Source: Globisporangium splendens
Taxonomy: Eukaryota; Oomycota; Peronosporomycetes; Pythiales; Pythiaceae
DNA length: 64,000 nucleotides
Assembly (NCBI GenBank): GCA_006386115.1
Contig: VFIW01000042.1
Location: 310,001 to 374,000, forward strand
Direction of reading: 5' to 3'
The notes beneath the pieces were generated by a model that did not search any database, was not told the DNA's origin, and saw only the letters and a program-made list of their open reading frames with translations. Below, one piece after another: positions 9,980 through 58,157 of the stretch; within the stretch, counting starts at the first letter, position 1, and every line of letters starts with the position of its first letter. A program made the translations under genes and the position numbers.

Positions 9980-12284
9980 GCTGATGACGATGAGTGCCAC
10001 AGCAGTCTCCAAATGGGCAATCACAACCTCTCACATCGATCAGGTCATCGGGGAAATCTTGCTGCACAACACAAGGGCTTCTTCGACGTACATCACGCCG
10101 CTCGATGCAATTCCAAGGCGGCCACCCCAGCTTCGTGATAACATGTGGACAACTGGCGCAGCATTATGTGCGTCGCTCCATTCTCGACCCTATGAGCCCA
10201 GAGAACGTGATAATGTACGTTGGTGTTACGAGCACTTCAAGTCGACAATTGTGCAGACTCAATGGGACGGCGATGTGTTCCAGATCGACCTCAGCTCTAA
10301 AATGTCTGACAGGCTTCCAGGTATCATCGCTGAAGGACGAAAGCTACGTGGGACATTCTGTGCAGAATGGCTGCCATACATGACCTCGACTGCAGATGGG
10401 TGGCTTCTTGATCCCAACGGCTCCCCCTACAAACTTGCTCACACATCATTATCAGTTGGAACAGCACAACTGGGTGACATACTTCGATGGGAGTGGAAAA
10501 GACCAGGAGTGCTTAACTTCATCCCAACATGTGGAATCTCCGGATTCTCCCGGCCGTCTATTCGAGCGCTCGAGCGGTTATGTGCTACGTTGGTATCCAA
10601 CTTCCCACAGCTTCTGTATCAACCACAGCAAACAAATGCGCTTCGGCTGTACAACGGGCAACGTCATTACAACCACGAATGGCATCTGCACACCAGTGAA
10701 GCAACTCTGACCCACGTCGACACGACCCTAGTCAAAGCTACGCATACAGTTCACTCCGCAACGGACTGCGACATCATGGCAACAAGAGACTTGAACGGGC
10801 AGAAGGTGTCGTTTCATGCACATCCACGCTTCACAAGAATCGTGCAACTATGGGGTGGCAACGGACGATACAATACGACCAGATCTTTCTATCGGCAACA
10901 AGTTGCAGCAACGAGGACACAAATTGGCAAAGATACTCGAGATGCAGCAGTCAACAAAGCTGTCCATACAGCAGGATCTCTGTGGCCAGGACTGCAATTA
11001 ATCCAGTGGAGCGAATTACACAACATCCCAGGGATTACTGCTTATACGGCTCAGACTCTTCTCCGGCTGAAAGCCAACCGACTCTCCATGTGGAACTAGG
11101 AGAAAGCTGATCTATCCTGCTCGAATCCCGAATGTTCCCAAGTTGTCCAATCTTCTGTTCAACATCTATTCTGGGAGTGTCCGAAAGCCAAACTCGTGTG
11201 GAACTACTTTTATGCGCTATGGGCGAAGATCGGAATCACTCCTGGTCACGACCCCGCAATCTGGATCTTCAGTCTGGATCTACCAGATACTCCAAGGCAT
11301 GCATGGACCACGATCAAGAGACACATTATCGGACACAAGTTCTCCAATGAACATCTCCAAGATCATCTCTATCCCGTCGCACACATGCTGTGGCGATATA
11401 TGAGCGCGTCGCTCATACAGACCATTTGGTGTGCGCATCTGCGACGCATGGATTCGGATCCAATCGAATCGACTGCTGAGATGACGATCATGATGACCAG
11501 ATTAGAGGCAGGAATGCGAAACCTCACACGACTCGCTGAAGCGCAAGCTGGAGACTCGGACGGTCACACGGTTGCGGCAGTCCTCAAGGCATATGTCGAC
11601 TGCTTTCTCAGCCAAACCGACGCCATCCCCTTGACTCCAAATGATACTCGCGGCGTTTACCTGTTGTTTTTCGATGGTGGATCACGCGGCAATCCAGGAC
11701 CAGGAGGGACTGGATCCATTATCGTGCGTGTCCATGAAAACTCGCACACAGCCAGTTTAATTTGGTCCGCGAGCATGGCGTATAGCAGGAAGGACACGAC
11801 CAACAACTTTGCCGAGTACTGGGGTCTCATACATGGACTCCGAGAAGCCCAACGCAGTCACTTCGAACCGTTGTACGTGATTGGAGACAGTGCACTCATT
11901 ATCTCCCAACAGCGAATGCATCGGTCCCCTCAACAGCACCGATTGGCACGTTTATACCAGACAAGTCGACGACTCGCGGATTGCATCGACATCCGAGGAT
12001 GGTACCATCACTACCGTGCCTTCAACAAGATGGCGGACTCAGCCGCCAACCTAGCCATGGACACCAGAACCTCAACGCAGGTCCACTTCCCAACTCATCG
12101 AGCTGCTTTCAACAATCTCACCCAGGATCTTGACAACGACGTCATGCATTGGCTTATGCGAAGTTCGGAAGACCCAAGGTCATCGGACAACACAAGGCAG
12201 CCTCACATAGGACCAAGAGAACATGCCATCCTGGTCAAAGATTATTTAGCAGTTAGAAGTGTTCTAGTGCAATCCGCGCTGTAG
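9942..12284 (+). pseudogene. LINE ORF2 C-terminal half with RNase H, interrupted by TAG
   Basis: In one frame this runs from a linker domain (MNGGLSVPNIRTEL...) through a zinc-knuckle-like C-x4-C-x8-H-x4-C (CSNPECSQ...HLFWEC) to an RNase HI domain. The domain has the family's catalytic pattern: DGGSRGNPGPGGTG, NNFAEYWGLIHGL, GDSALI and a late H...NKMADSAANLA. The stop at 11097-11099 (TAG) falls where the paralogue at 27736-29877 reads TAT (Tyr), so it is a point nonsense mutation. The RNase H portion is otherwise intact. It belongs to the same LINE as the RT ORF just upstream, from which it is separated by a one-base homopolymer shift. Confidence 0.85.
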
Positions 12285-17193: not shown

Positions 17194-17392
17194 GGACACT
17201 TCCGAGTTACGCAGCACGGTATGTGTGTGAGGAAGCGCATTCAACGCTTCTCTCAAGGACACTGTTCCGAGAGCGGTTGCCTGCTTCCTGCAGTGCAACA
17301 ATCGGTTACCTATAGGTCTCTATAGAGCAACCGTCGATAACCAAAGACTTAGTTAACGGTAAAAATGGAACTGTTTATTCGTTGGGGGTTGC
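17194..17392. other. Unassigned 199-bp segment between gag A and element B
   Basis: It does not continue the gag of element A and is not part of either LTR family. It ends exactly at the TGTAATGG terminus of element B. It may be left over from a third insertion or from the rearrangement that removed most of A. Confidence 0.5.
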
Positions 17393-18041
17393 TGTAATGG
17401 GCCACAACCAGCCATTACATGAAGGTGGATCTGTTCCCAGATCTAGTGTGTCACACACCACCTTCAGCGTGCATTGTGGAGACACAAATAACAAAGGGAT
17501 TACGGTAATACAGTCCCCACATGCACGTGTGACGTCATTCGATGACGTCACGAGCGTTCTCTGTGCTGATCAGTGCAGAATGTTGTTCTCATGTACTAAT
17601 CAGTACAGAGTGATAACATCCATGTACTAATCAAGTACTGAGTGATGGTTCCTGCTTGGGAAACTGGACTGGCGACGAGACCGACGTGTCTCTGCCGCCT
17701 GAAGTGAGTGGCGCGAGCCAATCACTTTGCAGGTATTTCAAACAAGACTTGAAGTTCAAGCTTCTAGAAGATCCCGTAGGTTCAACCTCAGTGTACCCAA
17801 GGTTTTATATATCAGATTCATAGGTTATATTGTGTATGTTTAGGTTTTAGTTATAAAACCTGTAGGATCCCTTGGGGTTCATTTGTAAGTAGCGACAGGA
17901 ACCATAACCTTTTTAATTCAGTTGCAAATTTTCCTCCAAGCCCTCAAGTCTTCTTCCTCCCTCCAAGTAGGGAGATCGCTTCCTCTGGCACAAGCGTGTG
18001 TGCCGTGTTTGAGGGACTGTTGTGAACAGCGCCCTCTTACA
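17393..18041 (+). repeat. 5' LTR of element B with twin CRE sites
   Basis: 649 bp with TG...CA ends. Contains two perfect CRE palindromes TGACGTCA at 17530-17537 and 17543-17550, spaced 5 nt, and a repeated GTACTAATCAGTACAG-type motif with GAGTGAT (about 17594-17645). Confidence 0.95.
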
Positions 18042-18043
18042 CC

Positions 18044-18061
18044 TGGTAGCACTTCGAGCGG
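18044..18061 (+). other. Primer-binding site of element B
   Basis: TGGTAGCACTTCGAGCGG starts 2 nt after the LTR and has the TGG expected to pair with a tRNA CCA end. Element A has a diverged version at the same place, so both probably used the same primer tRNA. Confidence 0.6.
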
Positions 18062-18160
18062 TCCTTCCAACGACCCAGTGAAGTGAAGAGGTTTGGCGAC
18101 GCGGCTTTAAGCACGTCGAGCATTCCTGTCGAAGACCCTGCGAGCATCCTTGTTTGGAAC

Positions 18161-19209
18161 ATGGATGCTACAGGAACCCCACTCGGTCCAGCAGTACCGG
18201 AAACTGTCGAGTTGACTATTGTGGGTTTCCCTCATTTGTCTTCTCATGAGTGGATGGCGCTTGAGCGCATGCGAGATGTCATCGGAGAGGCTGCTGTGGT
18301 CAGTCTGCTTGATCGACGTCTCCGGAGGACCAGAAGAGCGCGGTGGTCAGCTTTATGCACCACGAGATCATGTCCTCCCGGAAGCAGGTCGCAACCCCTG
18401 TTTCCTCAATCAGGACGGTGCCACTGAAGCTTGACGTCTCTCCGTATCGCGGCGGAGAGAACGAGCCACTCTCACGATGGTTCGTCGAGTTGGACGCAGC
18501 CATCGCTGCAAGACAACTGCGAGACCCTTCGCAGCAAGTGTTGTTCGCGATGTCCAACCTTGCGGGTCGTGCGAAGAGCTGGGCGTATGGCAAGCGTTTA
18601 GCGGATCTAAACTACTTCCCCAGCTACGACCACTTCAAGACCGAACTCAAGAAGGCGTTTGAACCTCCACAGAGTGAGTTCCATGCAGGCGCCGAGTTCC
18701 TTGAGCTTCGTCAAAGCCGTTTTGACCTTCACTCGTATGCACAACGTGCTCGTTACTTGGTGTCGAGTATCGTTGACGAGCCGATTGACGTTCCGACGCA
18801 AGTCGTGACGTTCATGACTGGTCTGAACGATGGTCCGATTCGGAACCAATTGTTCCGCGAGTACCCCAAGACGCTGGACGAAGCCATTGAACGTGCGATG
18901 CAAGAAGAGTTCAGCATGAAGCAAGCGAAGTTCCATGGGTTTGCGTCGAGACCAATGCGGCAATCGAATGTTGCGCATGATGGCCCCGAGCCTATGGACA
19001 TCTCGTACATTTCCACGCCTGGAAATGAACGTCCTCGCAACGATGGGAAGTGTTTCCGTTGCGGGAAGTCAGGTCACTTCGCTCGGAACTGCAAGGTGTC
19101 TTTGCCGGGTCGGCAAACGACACAGGGTGCTCGCTCGAACAACCACGATCGTTCTTACGGTCGTCGGTTCGAGCGGTCGCCTGGGCCAAAAAACGGGAAT
19201 GGACAGTAG
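18161..19209 (+). pseudogene. gag of element B (single-base frameshift)
   Basis: The N-terminal part (MDATGTPLGPAVPE..., frame from 18161) reads to LLDRR near 18319. The body then continues in the next frame (SPEDQKSAVVSFMHHEIM...) to the stop at 19207-19209. One base appears to be missing near 18319-18320. The body holds a gypsy capsid domain (YRGGENEPLSRWFVELDAAI, then AKSWAYGKRL and FELRQ-like helices) and a CCHC zinc knuckle, CFRCGKSGHFARNC (about 19050-19091), for RNA packaging. The 3' end overlaps pol by 160 nt and carries the slippery site. An alternative first ATG lies at 18083. The protein would be nucleocytoplasmic virus-like-particle material. Confidence 0.8.
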
Positions 19210-19227
19210 GGGCGGGGCCTCCTACTG
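19188..19227 (+). promoter_or_regulatory. -1 programmed ribosomal frameshift signal, gag-pol
   Basis: Slippery heptamer A AAA AAC (19188-19194) lies exactly in the gag frame (codons AAA AAC). A 9-nt spacer follows, then a stem CAGTAGGGG / CTCCTACTG (19204-19212 with 19219-19227; 9 pairs, one G-U) with a 6-nt CGGGGC loop. The gag stop TAG lies within the stem. After a -1 slip the ribosome enters the pol frame, which is open across this point. Confidence 0.88.
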
Positions 19228-22200
19228 ACCCGGAAAAGAGGACTGTGGACGTTGTGGAGACACAGAACTCTGGCCCCCATGTGCATCAAGCACATGCAGT
19301 TTCCACTATGAGTGAGAAGAGTGTCAGTCAAACGTCAAGTTTGATCGTTCACAGAGTTCATGTAGACGGTATTGCAACGCCTCTACGAGCTTTGGTTGAC
19401 ACTGGTGCGTCGAACAACTTTGTTCGGAATGAAGTGATCGTCAGGCATGGTGTCTTCGTGCCTGATGCGAATGAAGAGAAGATGATGATTGTCCGGTTGG
19501 CAAATGGGTCAACTGTGAAGATGCCGAAGAGAGTCATTCGTTTGGCAATCAAGTGTGAAGATTTCCGAGGTGAAGACGAGTTCATTTTACTCGACCTCGA
19601 TGACAAGTTTGATCTGATTCTGGGCATGCCATGGTTGAAGCGTTTCCAACCTAGCATTGACTGGATGAAGATGAAGATCTCCGTTGACAAGTCACGTGAT
19701 GTTGACTTGTGCTGCACAACAACGGATGAAGTGGTGTGGGTTTACACATCTGTGGAAGAGATCCCGGATGGCCCTTGTGATATTGCGGTGTGCGATGGCC
19801 CCCCATGTTCACAAGTGGTACCCATTTTGAAGACGACAAACGGAGGTGGAGCAGTCAGGCGCCAGAAAAAGACTGTCTCCTTTGCCATCGACGACGACAA
19901 GGTTCGTGATGGCGTTGACAAGAGTGAATGGAAGTGGAACAAACACCCTTCCCAAAACAAGAAGAAGAAGACCAGCAAGAGAAGTTTTTCGTCAAGAGTT
20001 TTGAGTTCCCCTGATCAAGGTACAAGTGGTGATGACGAAGGGAGTGTCCAAGCACAAGACATTCCAAGCGAGTTTGTGAATATCGCGGTCTACAATGAAG
20101 AAGGTGACGTGGATGTAATCCGTCACGTGAAGATTGAAAATCCTCCAAGTTCAGTCCAAGAGTTGATTTTCTTGCCATCGATGAGCAAGAAGACACTGGA
20201 GCGCAGCCTAGCGAGAGGCGATATTGCGCAGGTGTGTGTGATCGTCGAAATGGTCGACGAAGGCTTCGTCAACACAGCACCAAGTGCGGATGCAGATGTG
20301 TTGGACGAAAAGACACGGAAGGAAAGGTTCGAGGAGCAGTCGTGGGACGCCCTCAAGAAGAACCCCGTGTATGCGCTTGCCAGGGAATTTGAAGACATTT
20401 TCCCTGACAAGGTACCGGACGAATTGCCATTCGATAGAGGCATTCGTCATGAGATTGATGTACTTCCTGGCACGAAGTACTGCATCACAAGACAGTGGCC
20501 GTTGCCAAAGGAACAAGTCGAGGCAATCGACGAGCTCTTTGCACAACGTGCTAAGGCTGGTCATGTGCGGGAGAGCAAGTCTCCGCATTGCAGCCCCACT
20601 TTCTGCGTGAAGAAGGCAACTGGAGGTTGGCGCATTGTTCACGCTTTCGACAAGCTGAACGACGCGACAATTCCAGCCCAGACTCCGGTTCCACGCAAGG
20701 ACATGATCCTTGATGGAATGGTTGGCAGCACCGTCTTTAGTGCCATCGATCTGAAAGATGGGTTCTATCAGATTCGAATGCGTGAGAGCGATGTCCCACT
20801 AACCGCAGTGAGTACCCCTAGTGGTATGCTGTGGGAATGGTTAGTGATGCCACAGGGACTGAAGAATGCTCCTGCGACCTTCAATCGAATGGTCACGAAC
20901 GTTCTTCGTCCTCTGCGAACATTTGCACCAAGTTACTTTGACGATATTTTCGTTCATAGTAAGACCACGAATGGGAAGTCTGATGTCGATGTTCATCTCG
21001 ATCATCTTCGTCAAGTTTTCCAGGTCATGCGTGAGAACAAGCTCTACGCAAACTTGAAGAAGTGCATGTTCTTCTCCCCCGAGATCCCTGTTCTCGGTTG
21101 TTTTGTGGGCAAGAGCGGTGTTCGAGTCGATCCGGAGAAAGTCAAAGCTATTGACGATTGGCCAGTGCCAAAGAACGTCAAACAGCTACGACAATGGTTG
21201 GGTCTAGCCAGCTACTTGCACAAGTACACGCGCAATTATGCAGCGTTGGTGCAACCCCTCACACAGCTCTTGAAGAAAGACGTTGAGTGGAAGTGGTCGA
21301 AATACCATCAGACGGCGTTCGAAGAAGTCAAGAGGAGTCTTCGAGAAGCTCCTGTGTTGGCTCTGCCAAACCACGACAAGCCGTTCCACGTCGTCTGTGA
21401 TGCGAGCGACTATGCCATCGGTTGCGCGTTGATGCAACACGATGATGAGGGTCATGAGCGAGTTGTGTCGTATCAGTCACGACAACTCCGACCCGTAGAA
21501 CGGAACTACCCAGTTCACGACAAGGAACTTCTGGCGATGAAGTATTCTTTGGTCAAGTTCCGTGTGTATCTGGTTGGCGAGGAGCGCTTTGCTATCTACA
21601 CTGATCACGCATCTCTGCGTACGGCAGTGAAGACTCCTCATTTGTCGCAAAGAATGGCGAGATGGTTCTCCTTCTTTGCAGAGTACAACTTCGTTGTACA
21701 CTACAAGCCAGGCAAGACGAACATCTTAGCCGATGCGCTTTCAAGACGTCCGGATTACGATCCGAAGACCAAGAGTGAAGACACGGACGGAGCGTGTCGA
21801 CTCTGTGAAGATGTTCAAGCGATCGTGGTGCGAGCTACGACTACAGTGCGAGAAGAAATCGTCGAAGGGTACAAGTCTGACGAAACATGTCAGGACTTGC
21901 TGAAGTACTTCAAGAACCCTTCCGACAAAGCGCTGCAAGGTCTTCCGTCGCGCACAAGATCGCGAGTTCACCGCTTTCGAGTACACAATGGGTTGTTGTA
22001 CTACGCGGTCGAACAAGGGGATACAGCAAGGGTTGTTGTTCCCAACGACGAAGGTCTGCGTCATCGACTCTTGTGTGAGTACCATGACAGTCCTTCGGGT
22101 GGCCATCTCGGACGTGAGAAAACGTTTCTCAGTCTTTCCCGGGATTACTACTGGCCACACATGTACAAGTGGGTGCGCAAGTATGTGAGGACTTGCGAGA

Positions 22201-23978
22201 TCTGCCAACGAGTGAAACCTTCTGGTTCCACTCAGGCACCACTTCGTTCATTGGCTGTCCCTCAGGACAGTTGGAAGTCTGTGAGTATGGATTTCATATT
22301 CGGACTTCCAAGAGACACACATGGACGCAACGGCATCCTTGTGTTTGTGGACCGATTCAGCAAGATGGTTCATCTTGCGCCTGTTTCGGACAAGATCTCT
22401 GCTGAGAAGACTGCCAAGGTCTTTGTAGACGTCGTATTCCGTCTACATGGACTACCAGTCGAGATCGTGTCTGACCGTGACACCCGTTTCACGTCCAAGT
22501 TCTGGCGTGCACTGTTCGGACTTCTGGACACCAAGTTGTCCATGTCAACAGCGGCACACCCTGAAACGGACGGTCAAACAGAGCGAGTGAATCGTGTCCT
22601 CGAAGACGTGTTGCGCAGCTACGCAACGTCTTTCAAAGAGTGGAGTGAGTTTCTCCCTCTTGCCGAGTTTGCGTTGAACAACTCCACACATGTCTCGACA
22701 GGTCACTCTCCATTTTATGTGAACTATGGCATTCACCCTCGAGTGCCTGCTTCCATAATGGGTGAGGTCTCTACCTTGAGTGGGGGAGGGACTCCGGCTC
22801 ATGGAAACAAGCCGAAGTCGTCTTACGACCTGAATGCTGCTTCCGAGTTGAAAGCCAATTTTGACTCGATGAAACCCCTCGACGGCCTAACAAGTCGTGA
22901 AGAGCAGCAAGTCGATGACTTTGTTGTGAGGAGACAAGCCGTTGTGAGGTTTGTTCGAGACGCAATCGCAAAGGCTCAGGATCTGCAAAAGGAACAAGCA
23001 GACAAGAGCGGAAGGAAGAACAAGCAAGTTTATAAGATCAATGATCTTGTACTACTTAGCACGGCGAACCTGCCTGAACATGCAGTGTCCAACTTGGGAA
23101 GCTCCAAGCTTCTGCCAAGGTTCATTGGACCGTTCAAGGTAGTGAAATGCAATGGTGATGCCTACACGCTAGACATACCTACACGCATGCGTCTACACCC
23201 GACATTTTATGTGGGTAGACTAAAGCCTTACCTTCCAAGTGGATCTGCGGACCCTACGAGATCTTCCGCAAACGATCGAGCTGATCGTGAAGCTTCTCCA
23301 CTTGATTGCGAAGAGCAAACAGCTCATCGCTCTGGAGATTCTTCTCGGCGTACAGGAGTTGCAGGGCGTCGAAGGATTGGTCCTTCACTGCCTCCAACGC
23401 TTGAAGACGAGAATGGTACTCGCCACGAAGTACCTCGAGAGCCGAACCTGCCTCTTCCACAGAGCGCAACAGGCGATCGTGAGCCAACTCACGGGACTTC
23501 TCGTTCTTCTGGAGTCGAACAAGTTCGTCCTGAACCTGTTGGAACCGTTCCTCGTAACAGGACTCCAAAGCCGAACACTGGGCAGAACCTTCTGTCAGGA
23601 CGTTGATCTTCGACTCGTGATCGGCGACAAGGTTCTCGAGACTCTCGCAGCGTTCCTCAAGCGTCGAACAACGCTGCTGCAGCGCCTCGATTTGCCCACG
23701 ATGAGCACTCTTCCACTTCCAGAGCCGCTCAATCGTTTTCTCGTTCAGCCCCACCCCCGTTGTTAGACTCTCAGGGAGAGCATCGCTGGGTGGTTGAGCC
23801 GATTGTTGATCATGAAGATCGACCGGCTCATCGTCGAGGAAAGAAGCAGTCGAACCATCAACGCTTCTACAGAGTTCGGTGGCGTGGATATCCACCGAGC
23901 TCGGACACGTGGGAGCCTCGTCAGACATTGGAGTCTGATGTTCCCGACGTGATCCGCAGCTATGAGAACTGCTTGTAG
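19191..23978 (+). pseudogene. pol polyprotein of element B (PR-RT-RH-IN-chromodomain), one TGA
   Basis: Expressed from the -1 shift; the frame is open from 19050. Domain order: aspartic protease (VDTGASNNFVR near 19396; FDLILGMPW near 19608), a long acidic linker, reverse transcriptase with YFDD at 20934-20945, RNase H (CDASDYAIGCAL near 21400; IYTDHASLRT near 21600), integrase with an HHCC zinc motif (22080-22210) and DDE core (MDFIFGLP near 22287, SDRDTRF near 22468, TDGQTERVNRV near 22570). A disordered linker follows, then a chromodomain (HRWVVEPIVDHED...WRGYPPSSDTWEP) ending at the TAG at 23976. A single TGA at 23604-23606 removes the second half of the linker and the chromodomain; on both sides the frame is open. 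The order RT-RH-IN plus chromodomain makes it a chromovirus. Confidence 0.93.
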
Positions 23979-24321
23979 CGTCGCCAGGGGCGACACTACG
24001 ACGACCAGAGCTAGGATTCGCTCTGTCGTCAGCGGGAGTTCTTCTTTGGGCACGAGCATTGCCACGACGAAGAAGACGCTCCATCTTGTTCTCGTTCTCA
24101 AGACGAACAAATGTTCGCCATGAGTCTCGCTGAGCTGCGATGTGTTGGTTCGGATCATCGCGATCGTTGATCCGACGCCAACTGAAGAACCGCTCCTTGT
24201 AGAACTCGAGCTCCCCCTTCTTCTTCAGAATGGGAGAAATGTCGAAGAGTTCTGGAGCTGTCTGCTGTCGCTTGGACGACGGACGTTCTTCACGGTTCAC
24301 TTGGCCACTTGGTCGCTTCAT
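23254..24321 (-). CDS. Antisense ORF of element B: 355-aa coiled-coil protein
   Basis: Runs opposite to pol, from an ATG at 24321 (MKRPSGQVNREERPSSKRQQ...) to a stop at 23254, uninterrupted. The N-terminal 100 residues are basic with plausible globular content (ELEFYKERFFSWRRINDRDD). A Ser/Asp-rich middle overlaps the sense chromodomain. The C-terminal 160 residues show strong heptads (QIEALQQRC, TLEERCESLENLVADHESKINVL, LFALRNQVEKLHDQLDRLRK), predicting a long coiled coil. The sense strand of the coiled-coil part encodes only an Arg/Ser/Pro-rich linker, so the antisense frame may be the selected one. An Inr+FPR-like block lies just upstream. A frame open to 24420 starts inside the LTR and is less likely. 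I know no homologue; antisense genes occur in some plant Ty3/gypsy elements. Confidence 0.6.
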   Translation of the reverse strand: MKRPSGQVNREERPSSKRQQTAPELFDISPILKKKGELEFYKERFFSWRRINDRDDPNQHIAAQRDSWRTFVRLENENKMERLLRRGNARAQRRTPADDRANPSSGRRSVAPGDATSSSHSCGSRREHQTPMSDEAPTCPSSVDIHATELCRSVDGSTASFLDDEPVDLHDQQSAQPPSDALPESLTTGVGLNEKTIERLWKWKSAHRGQIEALQQRCSTLEERCESLENLVADHESKINVLTEGSAQCSALESCYEERFQQVQDELVRLQKNEKSRELAHDRLLRSVEEAGSALEVLRGEYHSRLQALEAVKDQSFDALQLLYAEKNLQSDELFALRNQVEKLHDQLDRLRKIS

Positions 24322-24322
24322 T

Positions 24323-24338
24323 GCCAATTGGAAAGTGA
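24323..24338 (-). promoter_or_regulatory. Promoter-like Inr+FPR block for the antisense ORF
   Basis: On the minus strand it reads TCACTTTCCAATTGGC, one base different from the promoter in the LTR of element A (TCACTTTCCAATTTGC). It ends one base before the ATG at 24321, giving a very short 5' UTR of about 15 nt. Confidence 0.55.
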
Positions 24339-24397
24339 ACTGCTCCGAAAGGTCTGCAAAAGTACGCAAGGTACTTGTGACTTTAAGGAGGGGATGA

Positions 24398-25045
24398 TGT
24401 AATGGGCCACAACCAGCCATTACATGAAGGTGGATCTGTTCCCAGATCTAGTGTGTCACACACCACCTTCAGCGTGCATTGTGGAGACACAAATAACAAA
24501 GGGATTACAGTAATACAGTCCCCACATGCACGTGTGACGTCATTCGATGACGTCACGAGTGTTCTCTGTGCTGATCAGTGCAGAATGTTGTTCTCATGTA
24601 CTAATCAGTACAGAGTGATAACATCCATGTACTAATCAAATACTGAGTGATGGTTCCTGCTTGGGAAACTGGACTGGCGACGAGACCGACGTGTCTCTGC
24701 CACCTGGAGTGAGTGGCGCGAGCCAATCACTTTGCATGGATTTTAAACAAGACTTGAAGTTCAAGTTTCTCGAAGATCCCGTAGGTTCAACCTCAGTGTA
24801 CCCAAGGTTTTATATATCAGATTCATAGGTTTTATTGTGTATATTTAGGTTTTAGTTATAAAACGTGTAGGATCCCTTGGGGTTCATTAGTAAGTAGCGA
24901 CAGAAACCATAACCTTTTCAATTCAGTTGCAAATTTCCTCCAAGTACTCAAGTCTTCTTCCTCCCTCCAAGTCGGGAGATCGCTTCCTCTGGCACAAGCG
25001 TGTGTGCCGTGTTTGAGGGACTGTTGTTAACAGCGCCCTCTTACA
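24398..25045 (+). repeat. 3' LTR of element B
   Basis: 648 bp. CRE palindromes TGACGTCA are retained at 24535-24542 and 24548-24555. The preceding polypurine tract is CTTTAAGGAGGGG. Confidence 0.95.
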
Positions 25046-25326
25046 ATTTTTCATACCTCATTGCTCAAGCCATACCAAAAAGATGACAAGCGTAAGCAGC
25101 AAACCAGTAAAGCTTTACTCGCGGACGGCACATCAGAAGGTCAACTTGTTCGAGCCGTCATTGATTACCGCACACGCCAAGGAAAAGAAGAATACAAGAT
25201 CCACTGGCTTGGTGAGTCCATAACGGAAGCAACGTGGGAACCCGCTGAAAACCTTAAACAAATTCCAGGATTGATTGAAGAATACCGCAACTCGAAGAGG
25301 GAAGATCTTCTCTTAAAGGGAGGTCG
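25046..25326 (+). pseudogene. C-terminal pol remnant of element A with chromodomain
   Basis: The frame begins right at the end of element B with IFHTSLLKPYQKDD, the typical end of an integrase C-terminal region. It continues into a chromodomain (LVRAVIDYRTRQGKEEYKI, then HWLGESITEATWEPAENL) that would direct integration to methylated chromatin. The open frame runs on into the 3' LTR to 25381. A polypurine tract TAAAGGGAGG (25314-25323) precedes the LTR. Everything upstream in A's pol is gone, replaced by element B. Confidence 0.85.
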
Positions 25327-26908: not shown

Positions 26909-26981
26909 CTATGTGGTTTGGTCGAAATGACCGATCCTTTCATAATGGCGACCATGAGGAAACCAGATGATCAAGTCAAGT

Positions 26982-27326
26982 CTCAAGGCATATGTCGACT
27001 ACTTTCTCAGCCAAACCGACGCCATCCCCTTGACTCCAAATGATACTCGCGGCGTTTACCTGTTGTTTTTCGATGGTGGATCACGCGGCAATCCAGGACC
27101 AGGAGGGACTGGATCCATTATCGTGCGTGTCCATAAGGACTCGCACACAGCCAGTTTAATTTGGGCCGCGAGCATGGCGTATAGCAGGAAGGACACGACC
27201 AACAACTTTGCCGAGTACTGGGGTCTCATACATGGACTCCGAGAAGCCCAACGCAGTTAAGTAGGAGAATGGATATTGTAGGTCACGAAGATGAACCTAA
27301 ATATACCTCACATTATAAAGATATAC
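26982..27326 (+). mobile_element. LINE copy C2, truncated and internally deleted
   Basis: Nearly identical to C1 from CTCAAGGCATATGTCGAC through the first half of RNase H (DGGSRGNPGPGGTG...LREAQRS). It then jumps at about 27257 straight to the 3' UTR (GTAGGAGAATGGATATTG) and ends in TTATAAAGAT. About 470 bp present in C1 (roughly 11858-12327) is missing. No target duplication was recognised. Confidence 0.85.
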
Positions 27327-27330
27327 TGGG

Positions 27331-27636
27331 ATGCTTGAGGTGACGATAAACCACAGTTTCTGCAGCATTGCACATTGTTCCGGAGTAATGAAATCAAAGC
27401 GTTTTTCCAATTCCCGGAGCAAAGATCGTTGACCTGGCGGAGCTGTGCGGCTAGCAATATGAGGTAGGAAGAGATTGAGTGCTTGCTCTGCGACGGACTA
27501 AAGCCACAAATTGTCGCCCAAAGCCGAACTTGCTCAGCACAAGGTACAGAAAGTCTCTGTCCAACGTGTCGTAAGCCTTCATGAAGTCAAACATCGCAAT
27601 TCCCGGAGCGTCATCCAACCCTTCTACATCTTCATA
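27331..27636 (-). mobile_element. Fragment of a different LINE RT (element D)
   Basis: On the minus strand it reads GIAMFDFMKAYDTLDRDF followed by LSKFGFGRQFVALVRR, the motif A region of a non-LTR reverse transcriptase (FDFxKAYDTxDRxF). It differs from the sequence of the C-type LINEs. It abuts the 3' end of copy C3 on the same strand. Further down (to about 27331) another frame, PPGQRSLLRELEKRFDFITP, is open but unassigned. Confidence 0.75.
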
Positions 27637-29953
27637 AGGTGAGGTATATTTAGGTTCATCGTCGTGACCTACAATATCCATTCTATTCTCCTACCTAATC
27701 TTCATTGCGAATTTCATACAGGAGTGTAAATGTGTCTATAGCGAGGATTGCACTAGATCACTTCTGAATGCTAAATAATCTTCGACCAGGATGGCACGTT
27801 CCCTTGGTCCTATGTGAGGCTGCCTTGTGTTGTCCAATGACCTTGGGTCTTCCGAACTTCGCATAAGCCAATGCATGACGTCGTTGTCAAGATCCTGGGT
27901 GAGATTGTTGAAAGCAGCTCGATGAGTTGGGAAGTGGACCTGCGTTGAGGTTCTGGTGTCCATGGCTAGGTTGGCGGCTGAGTCCGCCATCTTGTTGAAG
28001 GCACGGTAGTGATGGTACCATCCTCGGATGTCGATGCAATCCGCGAGTCGTCGACTTGTCTGGTATAAACGTGCCAATCGGTGCTGTTGAGGGGACCGAT
28101 GCATTCGCTGTTGGGAGGTAATGAGTGCACTGTCTCCAATCACGTACAACGGTTCGAAGTGACTGCGTTGGGCTTCTCGGAGTCCATGTATGAGACCCCA
28201 GTACTCGGCAAAGTTGTTGGTCGTGTCCTTCCTGGTATAGGACATGCTCGCGGACCAAATTAAACTGGCTGTGTGCGAGTTTTCATGGACACGCACGATA
28301 ATGGATCCAGTCCCTCCTGGTCCTGGATTGCCGCGTGATCCACCATCGAAAAACAACAGGTAAACGCCGCGAGTATCATTTGGAGTCAAGGGGATGGCGT
28401 CGGTTTGGCTGAGAAAGCAGTCGACATATGCCTTGAGAACTGCTGCAACCGTGTGACCGTCCGAGTCTCCAGCTTGCGCTTCAGCGAGTCGTGTGAGGTT
28501 TCGCATTCCTGCCTCTAATCTGGTCATCATGATCGCCATCTCAGCAGTCGATTCGATTGGATCCGAATCCATGCGTCGCAGATGCGCACACCAAATGGTC
28601 TGTATGAGCGACGCGCTCATATATCGCCACAGCATGTGTGCGACGGGATAGAGATGATCTTGGAGATGTTCATTGGAGAACTTGTGTCCGATAATGTGTC
28701 TCTTGATCGTGGTCCATGCATGCCTTGGAGTATCTGGTAGATCCAGACTGAAGATCCAGATTGCGGGGTCGTGACCAGGAGTGATTCCGATCTTCGCCCA
28801 TAGCGCATAAAAGTAGTTCCACACCAGTTTGGCTTTCGGACACTCCCAGAATAGATGTTGAACAGAAGATTGGACAACTTGGGAACATTCGGGATTCGAG
28901 CAGGATAGATCAGCTTTCTCATAGTTCCACATGGAGAGTCGGTTGGCTTTCAGCCGGAGAAGAGTCTGAGCCGTATAAGCAGTAATCCCTGGGATGTTGT
29001 GTAATTCGCTCCACTGGATTAATTGCAGTCCTGGCCACAGAGATCCTGCTGTATGGACAGCTTTGTTGACTGCTGCATCTCGAGTATCTTTGCCAATTTG
29101 TGTCCTCGTTGCTGCAACTTGTTGCCGATAGAAAGATCTGGTCGTATTGTATCGTCCGTTGCCACCCCATAGTTGCACGATTCTTGTGAAGCGTGGATGT
29201 GCATGAAACGACACCTTCTGCCCGTTCAAGTCTCTTGTTGCCATGATGTCACAGTCCGTTGCGGAGTGAACTGTATGCGTAGCTTTGACTAGGGTCGTGT
29301 CGACGTGGGTCAGAGTTGCTTCACTGGTGTGCAGATGCCATTCGTGGTTGTAATGACGTTGCCCGTTGTACAGCCGAAGCACATTTGTTTGCTGTGGTCG
29401 ATACAGAAGCTGTGGGAAGTTGGATACCAACGTAGCACATAACCGCTCGAGCGCTCGAATAGACGGCCGGGAGAATCCGGAGATTCCACATGTTGGGATG
29501 AAGTTAAGCACTCCTGGTCTTATCCATTCCCATCGAAGTATGTCACCCAGTTGTGCTGTTCCAACTGATAATGATGTGTGAGCAAGCTTGTAGGGGGAGC
29601 CGTTGGGATCAAGAAGCCACCCATCTGCAGTCGAGGTCATGTATGGCAGCCATTCTGCACAGAATGTCCCACGTAGCTTTCGTCCTTCAGCGATGATACC
29701 TGGAAGCCTGTCAGACATTTTAGAGCTGAGGTCGATCTGGAACACATCGCCGTCCCATTGAGTCTGCACAATTGTCGACTTGAAGTGCTCGTAACACCAA
29801 CGTACATTGTCACGTTCTCTGGGCTCATAGGGTCGAGAATGGAGCGACGCACATAATGCTGCGCCAGTTGTCCACATGTTATCACGAAGCTGGGGTGACC
29901 GCCTTGGAATTGCATCGAGCGGCGTGATGTACGTCGAAGAAGCCCTTGTGTTA
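27637..29953 (-). mobile_element. LINE copy C3, 5'-truncated with intact C-terminal ORF
   Basis: Same family as C1, C2 and C4, in the opposite orientation to C1. The match to C1 begins at about 29953 (ACACAAGGGCTTC) and runs to the shared 3' end near 27637. It lacks the reverse transcriptase. The remaining frame has neither the A-tract shift nor the TAG seen in C1, so it represents the functional sequence of this half. Confidence 0.9.
27736..29877 (-). pseudogene. LINE ORF2 C-terminal part with RNase H (713 codons)
   Basis: An open reading frame from the linker region (MWTTGAALCASLHSRPYEP...) through the CCHC-like zinc motif (CSNPECSQVVQ...HLFWEC) to RNase HI: DGGSRGNPGPGGTG, NNFAEYWGLIHG, GDSALI, AFNKMADSAANLA. 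The frame is open at its 5' end to the truncation point, so the annotated ATG is internal, not the native start. Without RT it cannot retrotranspose itself; RNase H activity could survive if it is expressed. It is the best reference for repairing the reading of C1. Confidence 0.8.
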
Positions 29954-54690: not shown

Positions 54691-57600
54691 ACGTCGCCTG
54701 CGCGTTCCAACAAGAACACGTGGAAGCGATTAGACGCGTATTGGCAAAGAGAAACGAGACTCCGCCACGTCCATTCGTCGACGTCTGCAGAGAGCTCCAG
54801 ATATACGGGGCACCGACGATGCTGGCGCACAAGGATACTCCTGCCGCGCTCGATGTGCAGCATGCGCTTGGGTCGCTGATGCTGTTCCCGACGCAGGGGC
54901 TGCTGCTCTCGGCGCTGAGCACGGTGCACCAGCTGTGTCTCCAGGCGAAGGACCGTCAGAACGCGAGTCTGCAGCTGCACGCACGACTGCATCAAGTGTT
55001 CCTTCGGATCACGAACTCTGCGTCGCATGGCACGCTGAGCAAGGGCTTTGAGGTGTCGAGCTTCACGAGCCTCTTGAACCAGTTCCGCCTCGTGCTGGAG
55101 CAGCATGTGCGGCTCAAGAATATTGTGCTGCGTATGCTCGCGAGCCGACGCTTCCTCGCGAGTATCAAGAAGGTTCACGAAGAGCTCAGCGCGCTGATCA
55201 CGAAGTGGCATCTCGCGAGCGCCACCAGCGCCACGATGGTCTGGAAGGAGCAGTTTGCGATCAACCTGCATCTGGACGAGAAGACGCTGCATGCGACGCT
55301 GCGCGCGCTGCTCGCGACCACGTTCGTGAGCAAAGAGTATTTTAGCGAACGCCGCCAGTCGCAGATTCTAATGGAGCTCGTGTGTGAGTTTGCACCCGAG
55401 CGCGAGCGCTCGAAGCACAACTCGCCGCATCTGCTGGAGACGCTCAAGATGACGCACAAGCGGATCTCCAACTACTCGGGGGTGCACATCCGCCGCGTGC
55501 CGCGCTGGTTCCTCCCACGATCCGAGGTCGAGGGCACGGACAAGTACAAGATGGTTGGCCACGGTTCGTTCGCCTCCACTTTATTTCGCGGCGACTACTT
55601 CGGCGTCGATGTCGGCAGCACGGGCGGCCACGCGGTCGCGGTCAAGTATCTCTGGCCGCTCAAAGATGCGTACTACACGCAGGTCGAGCACGTGTTCGTC
55701 CAGACGGTCCAGGAATGGTGGCACATCAACCACCCGAACGTCGCGCAAGTGCGAGGCGCATGCCATGTAGCCAGCCCGCCGTACATTGTCCGCGACTTTG
55801 CAGCGTACGGTAACCTCACGACGTACATCGGGGCGGTGCGTGCGCACGCGAACGACCCGAAGCCTGGCGAGTCCAAGGCGCACAAGATCGAGACGGTCAT
55901 GTGGGAGCTCATCTACGGCGCGTGCAAGGGTGTCTTGTACCTCCACGAGCGAAGGAAACTCGTGCACGGCGGGCTTCGGTGCAACAACATCTTGGTGAGT
56001 AAATCAGGGCAGGCTGTGGTCGCGGACTACGGCATGCGAGCCTTGGCGTGTGAAGTGCGGAAACACAACATGGACGTGGACCATGCCAAGGTCGATGAGA
56101 GCGAGTACATTCGGTGGCAAGCGCCCGAGTGTCTGCTCGAGGAGAGCGGCGCGTCGCTGTTTTTCGCGTCGGAGGCGTCAGTCCCGTCGTCGAACGCGAA
56201 CTTGTCGTTTGCATCGGACGTGTACGCACTGGGGATGTGCATTTTAGAGGCTGTGACCGGAGCTGTGCCATGGAGCGATCTCGATATCTCCGAGGTACGC
56301 TCGTTGAAGCAGAATCTCGGAGGCGTGCTACCACCGCGACCCAAGCGCATGCACACGGACGTCTGGAGCCTCGTGCAACGAATGTGTGTCGCCGATCCGA
56401 AGCAGCGCATTTCGCTGCGTACCGTCCTGACAGAGATCAAAGGACTGGGTTACGTTGGCTATGGGAGCAAGAACGTGCAGATCGAGACACCAAAGCAAAG
56501 TGGGAATGACGACGGCCACGCGCCGTCAGCGAAGGCATCGGAAAACGACTCGATTGTGACGCTCAGTAGCGCGAGTGGCCAACAAAGCAACGATGCTGTA
56601 CAAGTACCAAACAATGCAGAGGGAAGAAATAATCAAGGCGCTGAAGTCGCAGACCCAGGCTGTACGAGCGAACAGCAGATCGGAGCGCAAGGTCATGCTT
56701 CAGTATCGAAATCGAAACAGGATTCCAGTCGCAGCTCGCTCAAGTCCATGGGCGTGGATTCAGACACGCCATCGCCTGTTGTGGAGACCCCAGAGAACGC
56801 TGAAGCTGTGAATGCACAGGATGCCAGTATTCTGATCAATGATCAGTCACCGGATCACGTTATCGCTGCTGCAGCAGAAATCGCAGAGCGTTCAACTTTC
56901 GGTATTCCTAAAAAGTCAGAAGAAGCAGCAGAACTTCCTCAAGGATCTGTTCATGGTACCGATGAGCTTCCAGCGCCGGAGCGAAAAGTGTATAGTTCGA
57001 TTTTGAGACCGATGAATGGAGCAGAATCCGAGGCTCCAGTCATGGAGCTTGCGTCCCAACTAGAGATCCTTGAAACGAGCGATGAAGAAGACGTCGTACC
57101 TGACATCGATCTGGTGTTTCTTAATCCAAAGATTACAGCACCAATGGAGGGTGACGATGGCGACAAGGAGAAATCTGACGATGCGTTGGCGAAGGTGAAT
57201 GGCGCAGACCGTGAAACCAAACCCGTTGTTGAAGATATGAACTTCGTCGTCGAGTACCAAGACGTTCAAGTGCAAGGAACCATTCAAGGCATCGAAAAGT
57301 GTTCGGCAATGGACATCATTGGCCCGTCAGAAGAAGAGGTGAATATCTTTCTGGTTAAAAACACCAAGGCTTCTCCGAAAAAGTTGTCGAGCACCGCATC
57401 GACGGTGGAACCGGAGCACGAAATCGAGAGCAGTGATGCCTCTTTTGTTGGTGAGCACAAGGATATCTGCAGTCTGGATCGCGAAGTAAAGAAACCGGAG
57501 GCAGTGGAGGAAGCCCCAATCTCGCTCACAAGTGAGCTTCGCAACCGCATCAAGTCTAACGGCCCGAATTACGACCGAAGCTCGTTTCTCGACAATCTCC

Positions 57601-58157
57601 TGCGTGCGACCACTCTGCGGACGGAGTACATGACTGCGAAGGAGACCAGCGAGTTGCCGCCTCCGCCGCCTTTGTCGACGCCAAGATTCGTCGATCTCGT
57701 TGAAACCATCAAAGCGCACGATCAGCCAGAAGTCGTGCTGCAAGCCCTTGGCATGCTGCGCAACGGACTTCGACGGGATAAGCAAGACGTCGACTGGACC
57801 GAACAAGGTGGCATTCTGGCATTGCTTCAGATTATCTGGAAAGGGATTTCGAAGAAATGCACTTGTCTGGCGTTGGATATCCTGGTCGAAATCGCAGTGC
57901 AGAACCCCGAGGACATTGAAGCCATGGTGGACAGCGATGTCGTCAAAGTGCTGACCAAGTTCATCGAGTACCGTGGTGCCTCCGAAGAGCTGGACCTCGT
58001 TGCGTCGTTTCTGTTGGAGATCCTCGCGAAAAGTGATAACGCGAAAGACCGGTTGTGGCGAAGCGAAGGAATCAAAGTGCTCGAGGCGAACACGGCAATC
58101 GATCGACGCTTGGTCCAAGAGATCAAGTCGATCATGGCGAAATACAAGTCGAGGTAA
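54691..58157 (+). CDS. TKL-like pseudokinase with C-terminal ARM-like repeats
   Basis: An open frame of about 1,155 codons. The N-terminus is unresolved: the frame starts after an acceptor-like CACTAG and the first clear ATG is at 54820, so an upstream exon is likely. A helical N-terminal region of about 270 aa precedes a kinase domain (about 55540-56470). That domain has a glycine loop (GHGSFASTLFRG), VAVKYLW with the lysine at 55644, the pseudo-catalytic motif HGGLRCNN (55965-; HRD changed to HGG), DYG in place of DFG (56025), and a plausible APE (WQAPECLL). Loss of the HRD aspartate predicts no phosphotransfer. A long acidic, Ser-rich disordered part follows, then about 150 aa of armadillo-like helices (GGILALLQIIWKGISKKCTC, ALDILVEIAVQNPEDIEAM). 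Probably a signalling scaffold. The TPR gene follows on the same strand. Confidence 0.85.

What the first reader, a model, noticed from the sequence alone, without database searches (positions are those of the whole stretch)
23254..24338. Antisense coiled-coil gene with its own promoter-like element inside a chromovirus
Element B carries an uninterrupted 355-codon ORF on the strand opposite pol. Its C-terminal 160 residues form regular leucine heptads, while the sense frame opposite them is only an Arg/Ser/Pro-rich linker. A 16-base Inr+FPR-like block (TCACTTTCCAATTGGC), one base different from the promoter in LTR A, ends one base before its ATG. A protein-coding antisense gene with a host-type promoter in an oomycete retrotransposon would be a new regulatory or accessory function. 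Antisense genes are known only from a few plant Ty3/gypsy lineages such as Grande. The sense chromodomain is overlapped too, so this is dual-coding DNA.
Basis: partly seen in the sequence, partly recalled or inferred. Interest (0 to 1): 0.9.

Follow-up and report, generated by a model that had tools for sequence, protein, structure and literature searches.

The report
Hidden antisense gene in oomycete retrotransposon
A virus-like jumping element in the plant pathogen Globisporangium splendens carries a second gene written backwards across its own polymerase gene, and evolution appears to have preserved both by letting the important parts of one protein lie opposite the unimportant parts of the other.

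Summary
Confirmed, and broader than reported. The 355-codon antisense ORF (23254-24321, minus) lies in a chromodomain-bearing Ty3/Gypsy element of Globisporangium splendens. It is not chance: synonymous recoding of the overlapping pol leaves it open in 8 of 20000 trials. Against a family (F59) whose antisense protein is 60% identical, antisense dN/dS is 0.24-0.29 where the gene is alone and opposite pol's linker; opposite the chromodomain the sense frame is the constrained one. So the DNA is dual-coding with segregated constraint. Of 116 copies chosen by integrase, at least 63 keep the antisense frame open. Sixteen homologues (43-80%) come from unnamed contigs. A sister family (S) has its own 536-aa antisense gene with a similar selection pattern; a third (T) has a long conserved antisense frame. 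The promoter-like block is conserved between B and F59, but lies very near the ATG, varies in its second half and was not found in S. No transcript, fold match or function is shown. Antisense genes are known in plant Ty3 elements, fungal Boty and HTLV/HIV; this is a new, overlapping variant. A role as accessory regulator is inferred.

The parts
17393..18041 (+). 5' LTR of element B
   Evidence: repeat pair; ends read from sequence; 634 of 656 aligned bases identical over slightly wider segments
19050..23606 (+). pol frame of this copy: protease, RT, RNase H, integrase, SH3-like domain; in-frame TGA at 23604-23606
   Evidence: Pfam; ORF list
23232..23765 (+). pol linker, R/S/P-rich, between the SH3-like domain and the chromodomain; sense dN/dS 1.7-1.8 between B and F59 over 23257-23765
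23766..23978 (+). C-terminal chromodomain of pol with its stop, same frame as pol
   Evidence: Pfam Chromo E=2.9e-13
23254..24321 (-). antisense gene, 355 aa
24043..24237 (-). antisense residues 29-93: conserved N-terminal domain of four predicted helices (invariant in 22 aligned sequences: W48 R49 D56 S67 W68 F71 V72 L74 E75 N76 E77), preceded by basic KR clusters
   Evidence: alignments, AlphaFold2
23791..24042 (-). antisense residues 94-177: predicted disordered, mostly opposite the chromodomain
   Evidence: antisense dN/dS 1.1-1.6 opposite the chromodomain
23260..23772 (-). antisense residues 184-354: long coiled-coil helix, opposite the pol linker
   Evidence: antisense dN/dS 0.28-0.29
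24323..24338 (-). INR+FPR-like block; INR exact, FPR one mismatch
24385..24397 (+). putative polypurine tract next to the 3' LTR (read from sequence, not tested)
   Evidence: the 20 nt 60-80 bases before the antisense ATG, which overlap it, are 18/20 identical between B and F59
24398..25045 (+). 3' LTR of element B

Best explanation
The ORF is a real antisense gene of the retrotransposon. SHOWN by sequence comparison: it is kept as a protein by purifying selection, in the N-terminal part where it is alone and in the C-terminal part opposite pol's linker, while opposite the chromodomain selection acts mainly on pol. The two proteins thus share about 720 bp by placing ordered parts opposite disordered ones. 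PREDICTED: a basic N-terminus, a small helical domain, a disordered middle, and a long coiled coil that would make it a dimer or oligomer. INFERRED: it is transcribed from the minus strand, from a start just upstream of its ATG or from the 3' LTR, and acts as an accessory factor, most likely a nuclear dimeric protein that binds element DNA/RNA or another element protein and tunes expression or integration, as has been proposed for antisense genes of plant Ty3 elements. My odds: coding gene under selection about 0.95; dual coding with segregated constraint about 0.9; nuclear regulatory role about 0.35.
For: Synonymous recoding of the 240 overlapping sense codons leaves the antisense frame open in 8 of 20000. 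Mean divergence between families B and F59 at antisense wobble vs sense wobble: antisense-only 0.489/0.298, linker 0.411/0.191, chromodomain 0.126/0.263, pol-only 0.189/0.414. dN/dS for two pairs of copies: antisense 0.27/0.24 (alone), 0.29/0.28 (linker), 1.6/1.1 (chromodomain); sense 0.35/0.29 (chromodomain), 1.8/1.7 (linker), 0.10/0.11 (pol-only). The same antisense phase in pol-only DNA gives 3.1/2.2, so the low values are not an artefact of the phase. 90 of 114 scored copies have no stop; at least 63 of 116 copies chosen by integrase are open. 81 homologues at E<=1: 65 named G. splendens, 16 from unnamed contigs, down to 43% identity. Sister family S shows a similar pattern, with an N-domain match above all 200 shuffles. 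Structure.
Against: No transcript or protein evidence was available. No Pfam family above its cut-off and no useful solved-structure match, so function is open. Of the 116 integrase-chosen copies 18 have stops in the antisense frame and 35 are unlisted; 9 of 9 unlisted copies that I read are broken. The 60 loci used for B and F59 were chosen by antisense protein match, which favours intact ones; the between-family comparison is less exposed to this. The pol-only averages include copies that align poorly; single pairs give lower values. Chromodomain contrasts in single B/F59 pairs are not significant (p 0.087, 0.15), nor are the linker contrasts in S (p 0.48, 0.14, 1). S has no INR+FPR block within 120 nt upstream.
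Confidence: 0.72

Rival explanations
1. The antisense frame is open by chance, a by-product of pol's codon usage and base composition.
For: The 114-codon antisense-only part alone is open in 1007 of 20000 first-order Markov sequences, so that part is not remarkable by openness.
Against: 8 of 20000 for the overlap under synonymous recoding; variation sits at the antisense wobble position in the antisense-only part and the linker; antisense dN/dS well below 1 there; the same phase in pol-only DNA gives 2.2-3.1 and is closed by stops.
Confidence: 0.03
2. The minus-strand RNA is what matters (double-stranded RNA or interference with sense transcription); the protein is secondary.
For: Reviews allow regulatory roles of antisense RNA itself in retroelements (PMC7264820, PMC10186651); a promoter-like block is conserved between B and F59.
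Against: An RNA role does not explain codon-phase-specific conservation in the antisense frame, nor the probably homologous antisense protein domain of a sister family.
Confidence: 0.1
3. A host coiled-coil gene was captured in reverse orientation.
For: Gene capture is known in LTR elements (PMC7264820).
Against: All named homologues are G. splendens proteins, and no Pfam match or clear non-element homologue was seen for B; two thirds of the gene lies inside pol; two other families have an antisense frame in the same place. No homologue search outside this genome was made for family T.
Confidence: 0.07
4. The protein is a structural or assembly partner of the element (for example a coiled-coil cofactor of Gag or of integrase/chromodomain) rather than a regulator.
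For: Long coiled coils suit scaffolding; co-encoding opposite the chromodomain ties the two to one module (inference).
Against: No direct evidence; basic KR clusters near the N-terminus would suit a nuclear protein.
Confidence: 0.25

Closest known systems
Antisense additional ORFs of plant Ty3/Gypsy elements (Grande gene23, RIRE2, Retand TRP28, PvRetro13) and fungal Boty
   Same: Antisense gene at the 3' end of an LTR element, conserved in most copies of a family, unknown function, suspected nuclear protein; Grande's is transcribed from its own promoter (PMC7264820, parts 1-2 of 3 read; PMC11963269, abstract and passages).
   Different: Those are described as lying between pol and the 3' LTR; here two thirds of the gene overlaps pol itself, opposite linker and chromodomain. 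No TRP28 domain. Different host group.
HTLV-1 HBZ and HIV-1 ASP
   Same: Proteins encoded antisense in a retroelement; HBZ is a basic leucine zipper factor, ASP lies antisense across env (PMC10186651, passages; PMC3185765, abstract in a search listing).
   Different: No bZIP domain here; those are driven from the 3' LTR, here the start is uncertain.
Segregated (asymmetric) overlapping genes, e.g. Tat/Rev of HIV-1
   Same: Each frame is constrained where the other is relaxed (PMC8227390, passages).
   Different: Tat/Rev overlap on one strand (recalled); here opposite strands of a retrotransposon, with order opposite disorder.
Chronos elements of oomycetes
   Same: Oomycete Ty3/Gypsy with a chromodomain at the end of pol (PMC5348765, abstract and passages).
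   Different: Chronos has a second, archaeal-type RNase H; Pfam shows none in element B's pol. The word 'antisense' does not occur in that paper's main text.

Membership tests
Ty3/Gypsy chromovirus | pol order protease-RT-RNase H-integrase | tested here: met
   Pfam order along pol
Ty3/Gypsy chromovirus | chromodomain at the C-terminus of pol | tested here: met
   Chromo E=2.9e-13 in the pol frame; frame continuous with pol in 26 of 30 B and 27 of 28 F59 copies, not in this copy
Ty3/Gypsy chromovirus | RT falls in the chromovirus clade | not tested
   no RT tree was made
Chronos (oomycete) | second, archaeal-type RNase H next to the element RNase H | tested here: not met
   only RT_RNaseH models match in pol at E<=1
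Antisense accessory ORF of LTR elements (general kind) | antisense ORF near the 3' LTR, kept in most copies and under selection | tested here: met
   open in at least 63 of 116 copies; dN/dS; it overlaps pol, unlike the described ones
Retand TRP28 antisense protein | Pfam Transposase 28 domain (PF04195) | tested here: not met
   not among the 15 weak Pfam matches at E<=1
HBZ-like bZIP antisense protein | bZIP domain | tested here: not met
   no bZIP family among the matches at E<=1
HBZ-like bZIP antisense protein | transcription from the 3' LTR | not testable with these tools
   no RNA data; some annotated models begin with MHAEG, which can be read from the LTR at 24479-24465
Oomycete INR+FPR promoter | YCAYTYY, 2 nt, MWTTTNC | tested here: inconclusive
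   INR exact, FPR one mismatch; 15/17 identical between B and F59; INR kept in 28 of 30 B copies but spacer and FPR vary; leader about 15 nt

The most novel reading that the evidence does not exclude
Chromodomain-bearing Ty3 elements of oomycetes generally carry an old antisense gene overprinted on the 3' end of pol. Three families in this genome have an antisense frame in the same place; in two of them it is under selection and the N-domains are probably homologous; in B the coiled coil and the disorder lie in register opposite pol's disorder and chromodomain. This would be an element-wide, HBZ-like regulatory layer whose geometry is dictated by segregated dual coding.
Probability: 0.5. Interest if true: 0.85.

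Novelty: new variant of a known kind. Interest (0 to 1): 0.74.

Why it matters
To my knowledge (recalled, not searched exhaustively) long antisense overlaps in eukaryotic elements are rarely backed by codon-level selection on both strands. Here the phase (antisense wobble on the sense second position) lets the two frames be told apart in a large family of copies, so the order/disorder segregation model becomes testable. It would also extend antisense accessory genes beyond plants, fungi and retroviruses, and it explains a set of annotated 'hypothetical proteins' of this genome as element genes.

Tried and rejected
Host-gene origin: no clear non-element homologue of B's protein in two protein searches nor of S's protein in one. 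Fold identity: no useful match in the PDB by Foldseek for the whole model or the N-domain; sequence hits fell in the coiled coil and were generic. Related DNA in viral contigs: 13 stretches matched a pattern, none confirmed. The exact-complement sense ORF 23239-23766 was rejected: divergence is highest at mod-1 positions, not at its wobble. Translation start upstream in the LTR: three of the four kinds of base change in the B block would be non-synonymous in that frame (my reading), so the ATG at 24321 is preferred; some annotated models start further up. S and T were fetched to see whether other chromodomain families lack the antisense gene; both have antisense frames, so no antisense-free family was found as a negative control. 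For element A only relatives of its chromodomain were searched; its antisense strand was not examined. The whole-alignment comparison of B and S (hhalign probability 89%) was set aside because it includes residues opposite the chromodomain, where likeness may come from pol; the antisense-only comparison is weaker.

Full report
SETTING. The window lies in a genome of 53,310,241 bases in 195 contigs whose proteins are named Globisporangium splendens. The assembly paper reports 53.3 Mb and genes predicted by AUGUSTUS with transcriptome hints (PMC7163027, whole text read). Element B runs from about 17393 to 25045, with LTRs 634/656 identical. Its pol has protease, RT, RNase H, integrase and SH3-like domains, and a chromodomain follows in the same frame. 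No matching target-site duplication is visible at its ends.

THE OBSERVATION. The antisense ORF is present: 355 codons, 24321 to 23254, with an upstream in-frame ATG at 24420. Its codons are offset so that the antisense third position is the pol second position and the pol third position is the antisense second position, which makes the two frames separable. Recoding the overlapping 240 pol codons synonymously with pol's own codon usage left the antisense frame open in 8 of 20000 trials (mean 6.5 stops). The antisense-only part (114 codons) was open in 1007 of 20000 Markov sequences, so its openness alone is not remarkable.

COPIES. A DNA search scored 40 of 378 candidates, all 40 matching over the whole query at 97-100%. 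A protein search scored 114 of 478 candidates; 90 of the 114 have no stop. For a less biased sample I took the 116 scored integrase matches (of 927 candidates): 81 have a near-full antisense match listed at the expected place, 63 of them open and 18 with stops; 35 are not in the capped lists, which does not by itself mean broken. I read nine of those 35: all nine carry all or part of the antisense DNA, and all nine are broken by frameshift, stop or truncation; a tenth locus read there, L078, is one of the listed copies and is intact. Copies with a sense open frame of at least 1500 codons have a listed, stop-free antisense frame in 27 of 38, the rest in 36 of 78 (Fisher p=0.017; leaving out the unlisted p=0.054). 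So the antisense frame does not decay preferentially where pol stays long.

SELECTION. Within 30 B copies (chosen by antisense match, hence biased) diversity by class (shared first position / antisense wobble / sense wobble) is .017/.037/.018 antisense-only.023/.018/.017 chromodomain.015/.043/.018 linker.042/.034/.089 pol-only. Mean divergence between B and a second family, F59, is .306/.489/.298.166/.126/.263.260/.411/.191 and .231/.189/.414 (58 loci, two short ones dropped; the pol-only averages include copies that align poorly). For L009 and L039 the antisense proteins are 60% and the compared pol stretch 88% identical, and pol-only differences are 46/28/161 of 492 each. For two pairs of copies dN/dS in the antisense frame is .27/.24 alone.29/.28 opposite the linker and 1.6/1.1 opposite the chromodomain; in the sense frame it is .35/.29 for the chromodomain, 1.8/1.7 for the linker and .10/.11 for pol-only. 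Antisense against sense wobble: linker p 8e-6 and 1.5e-5, antisense-only p .012 and .0035, chromodomain p .087 and .15 (not significant). The same antisense phase in pol-only DNA gives dN/dS 3.1/2.2 and is closed by stops. Standard dN/dS is only indicative in dual-coding DNA, but the position classes do not depend on it. Sense pol is open through linker and chromodomain in 26 of 30 B copies and 27 of 28 F59 copies; the window copy is among the exceptions.

PROTEIN. AlphaFold2 (22 sequences) predicts helices in residues 29-93, disorder in 94-177 and one helix in 184-354 (mean pLDDT 73.7, pTM 0.31). The disordered middle lies mostly opposite the chromodomain, the coiled coil opposite the linker. 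No Pfam family passes its cut-off, and no PDB fold is usefully matched. Of 81 protein homologues at E<=1, 65 are named G. splendens and 16 come from unnamed contigs of other sources (jgi, ena, lgn) at 43-80% identity; the profile search gave 89 at E<=0.01, again with no other named organism. Some proteins (P0040, P0045) look mosaic, F59-like at the N-terminus and more B-like in part of the coiled coil (by eye), which suggests recombination between families.

SISTER FAMILIES. A related chromodomain element (family S; integrase stretch 58% identical over 236 residues) has its own 536-aa antisense gene in the same position. For L079 against two divergent copies, antisense dN/dS is .36/.33 alone.31/.27 in the linker and 1.65/1.64 opposite the chromodomain; sense is .16/.14 in the chromodomain and .67/.79 in the linker; the two divergent copies against each other give .47.44 and 1.43 antisense. 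Those copies have two stops and one stop. The wobble contrast is significant in the antisense-only part and the chromodomain for the two L079 pairs, not in the linker, and nowhere for the third pair. The antisense-only N-domains of B and S align (28% identity over 65 columns, hhalign probability only 24%, E 8.6e-4), scoring above all 200 column shuffles: probable, not proven, homology. The coiled coils do not align significantly. A third family (T, L084) has an antisense frame open for 307 codons to the edge of the fetched piece, 55% identical over 284 residues to part of an annotated protein, P0091, whose end also looks like a coiled coil by eye; it has no Pfam match.

PROMOTER. The block matches INR (YCAYTYY) exactly and FPR (MWTTTNC) with one mismatch (definitions in PMC3599244: passages and section 8 read). 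Between one B and one F59 copy the last 17 nt before the ATG are identical at 15 of 17 positions, the 43 nt before that at 12 of 43 (ungapped). 27 of 30 F59 loci carry the motif at -17, but only 10 of 30 B loci carry it in the window's exact spelling up to CCAATT. Within B the block is more variable than its upstream flank (pi .082 against .003): INR is intact in 28 of 30, and the changes fall in the spacer and FPR. A start there leaves about 15 nt of leader, shorter than the 32-144 nt measured in 121 P. infestans genes. S has no such block within 120 nt. The promoter is plausible for B and F59, unproven, and not general. Some annotated models begin with MHAEG or MHTEG before the ATG; MHAEG can be read from the LTR at 24479-24465, which could mean a predicted first exon there.

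HOW IT MOST LIKELY WORKS. Shown: a protein-coding antisense gene with segregated constraint. Predicted: a coiled-coil dimer with a small helical N-domain and basic clusters. Inferred: an accessory nuclear factor acting on the element's own expression or integration. A structural partner of element proteins is the main rival.

WHAT IS KNOWN. Antisense accessory ORFs are described for plant Ty3 elements and Boty, between pol and 3' LTR (PMC7264820, parts 1-2 of 3 read; PMC11963269, abstract and passages), and for HTLV/HIV (PMC10186651, passages). Segregated overlap is known in viruses (PMC8227390, passages). For oomycetes, the listings of my searches and the passages of the Chronos paper (PMC5348765, with its abstract) showed no report of an antisense gene; I opened only some of the listed papers, and the library lacks most subscription papers. 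Hence: new variant of a known kind.

Noticed in passing
L079 673-2280 minus; L080, L081: A second chromodomain Ty3 family has its own 536-aa antisense gene opposite pol's linker and chromodomain, with a similar selection pattern.
   Followed up: yes
L084 79-999 minus: A third chromodomain family has a long antisense frame, 55% identical to part of annotated protein P0091; selection not tested.
   Followed up: partly
P0040, P0045: Mosaic-looking antisense proteins joining an F59-like N-terminus to a more B-like coiled-coil part, suggesting recombination between families.
   Followed up: no
window 17371-17392 and 25046-25065: Element B sits inside remains of element A but shows no target-site duplication, suggesting recombination or deletion after insertion.
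   Followed up: no
P0002, P0003, P0034, P0036 N-termini; window 24465-24479 minus: Annotated models begin with MHAEG/MHTEG before the B-type start, as if a first exon in the 3' LTR were spliced on; reminiscent of HBZ, untested.
   Followed up: no
window 26981-28438: Inverted repeat arms of 277 nt (97%) inside and beside a 713-aa minus-strand ORF with an RNase H-like motif (read by eye).
   Followed up: no
window 54720-58157: 1145-aa ORF with a protein kinase domain (Pfam E=4.5e-30).
   Followed up: no
window 11196-12284: ORF with a reverse-transcriptase-like RNase H domain (RVT_3, E=2.8e-16).
   Followed up: no
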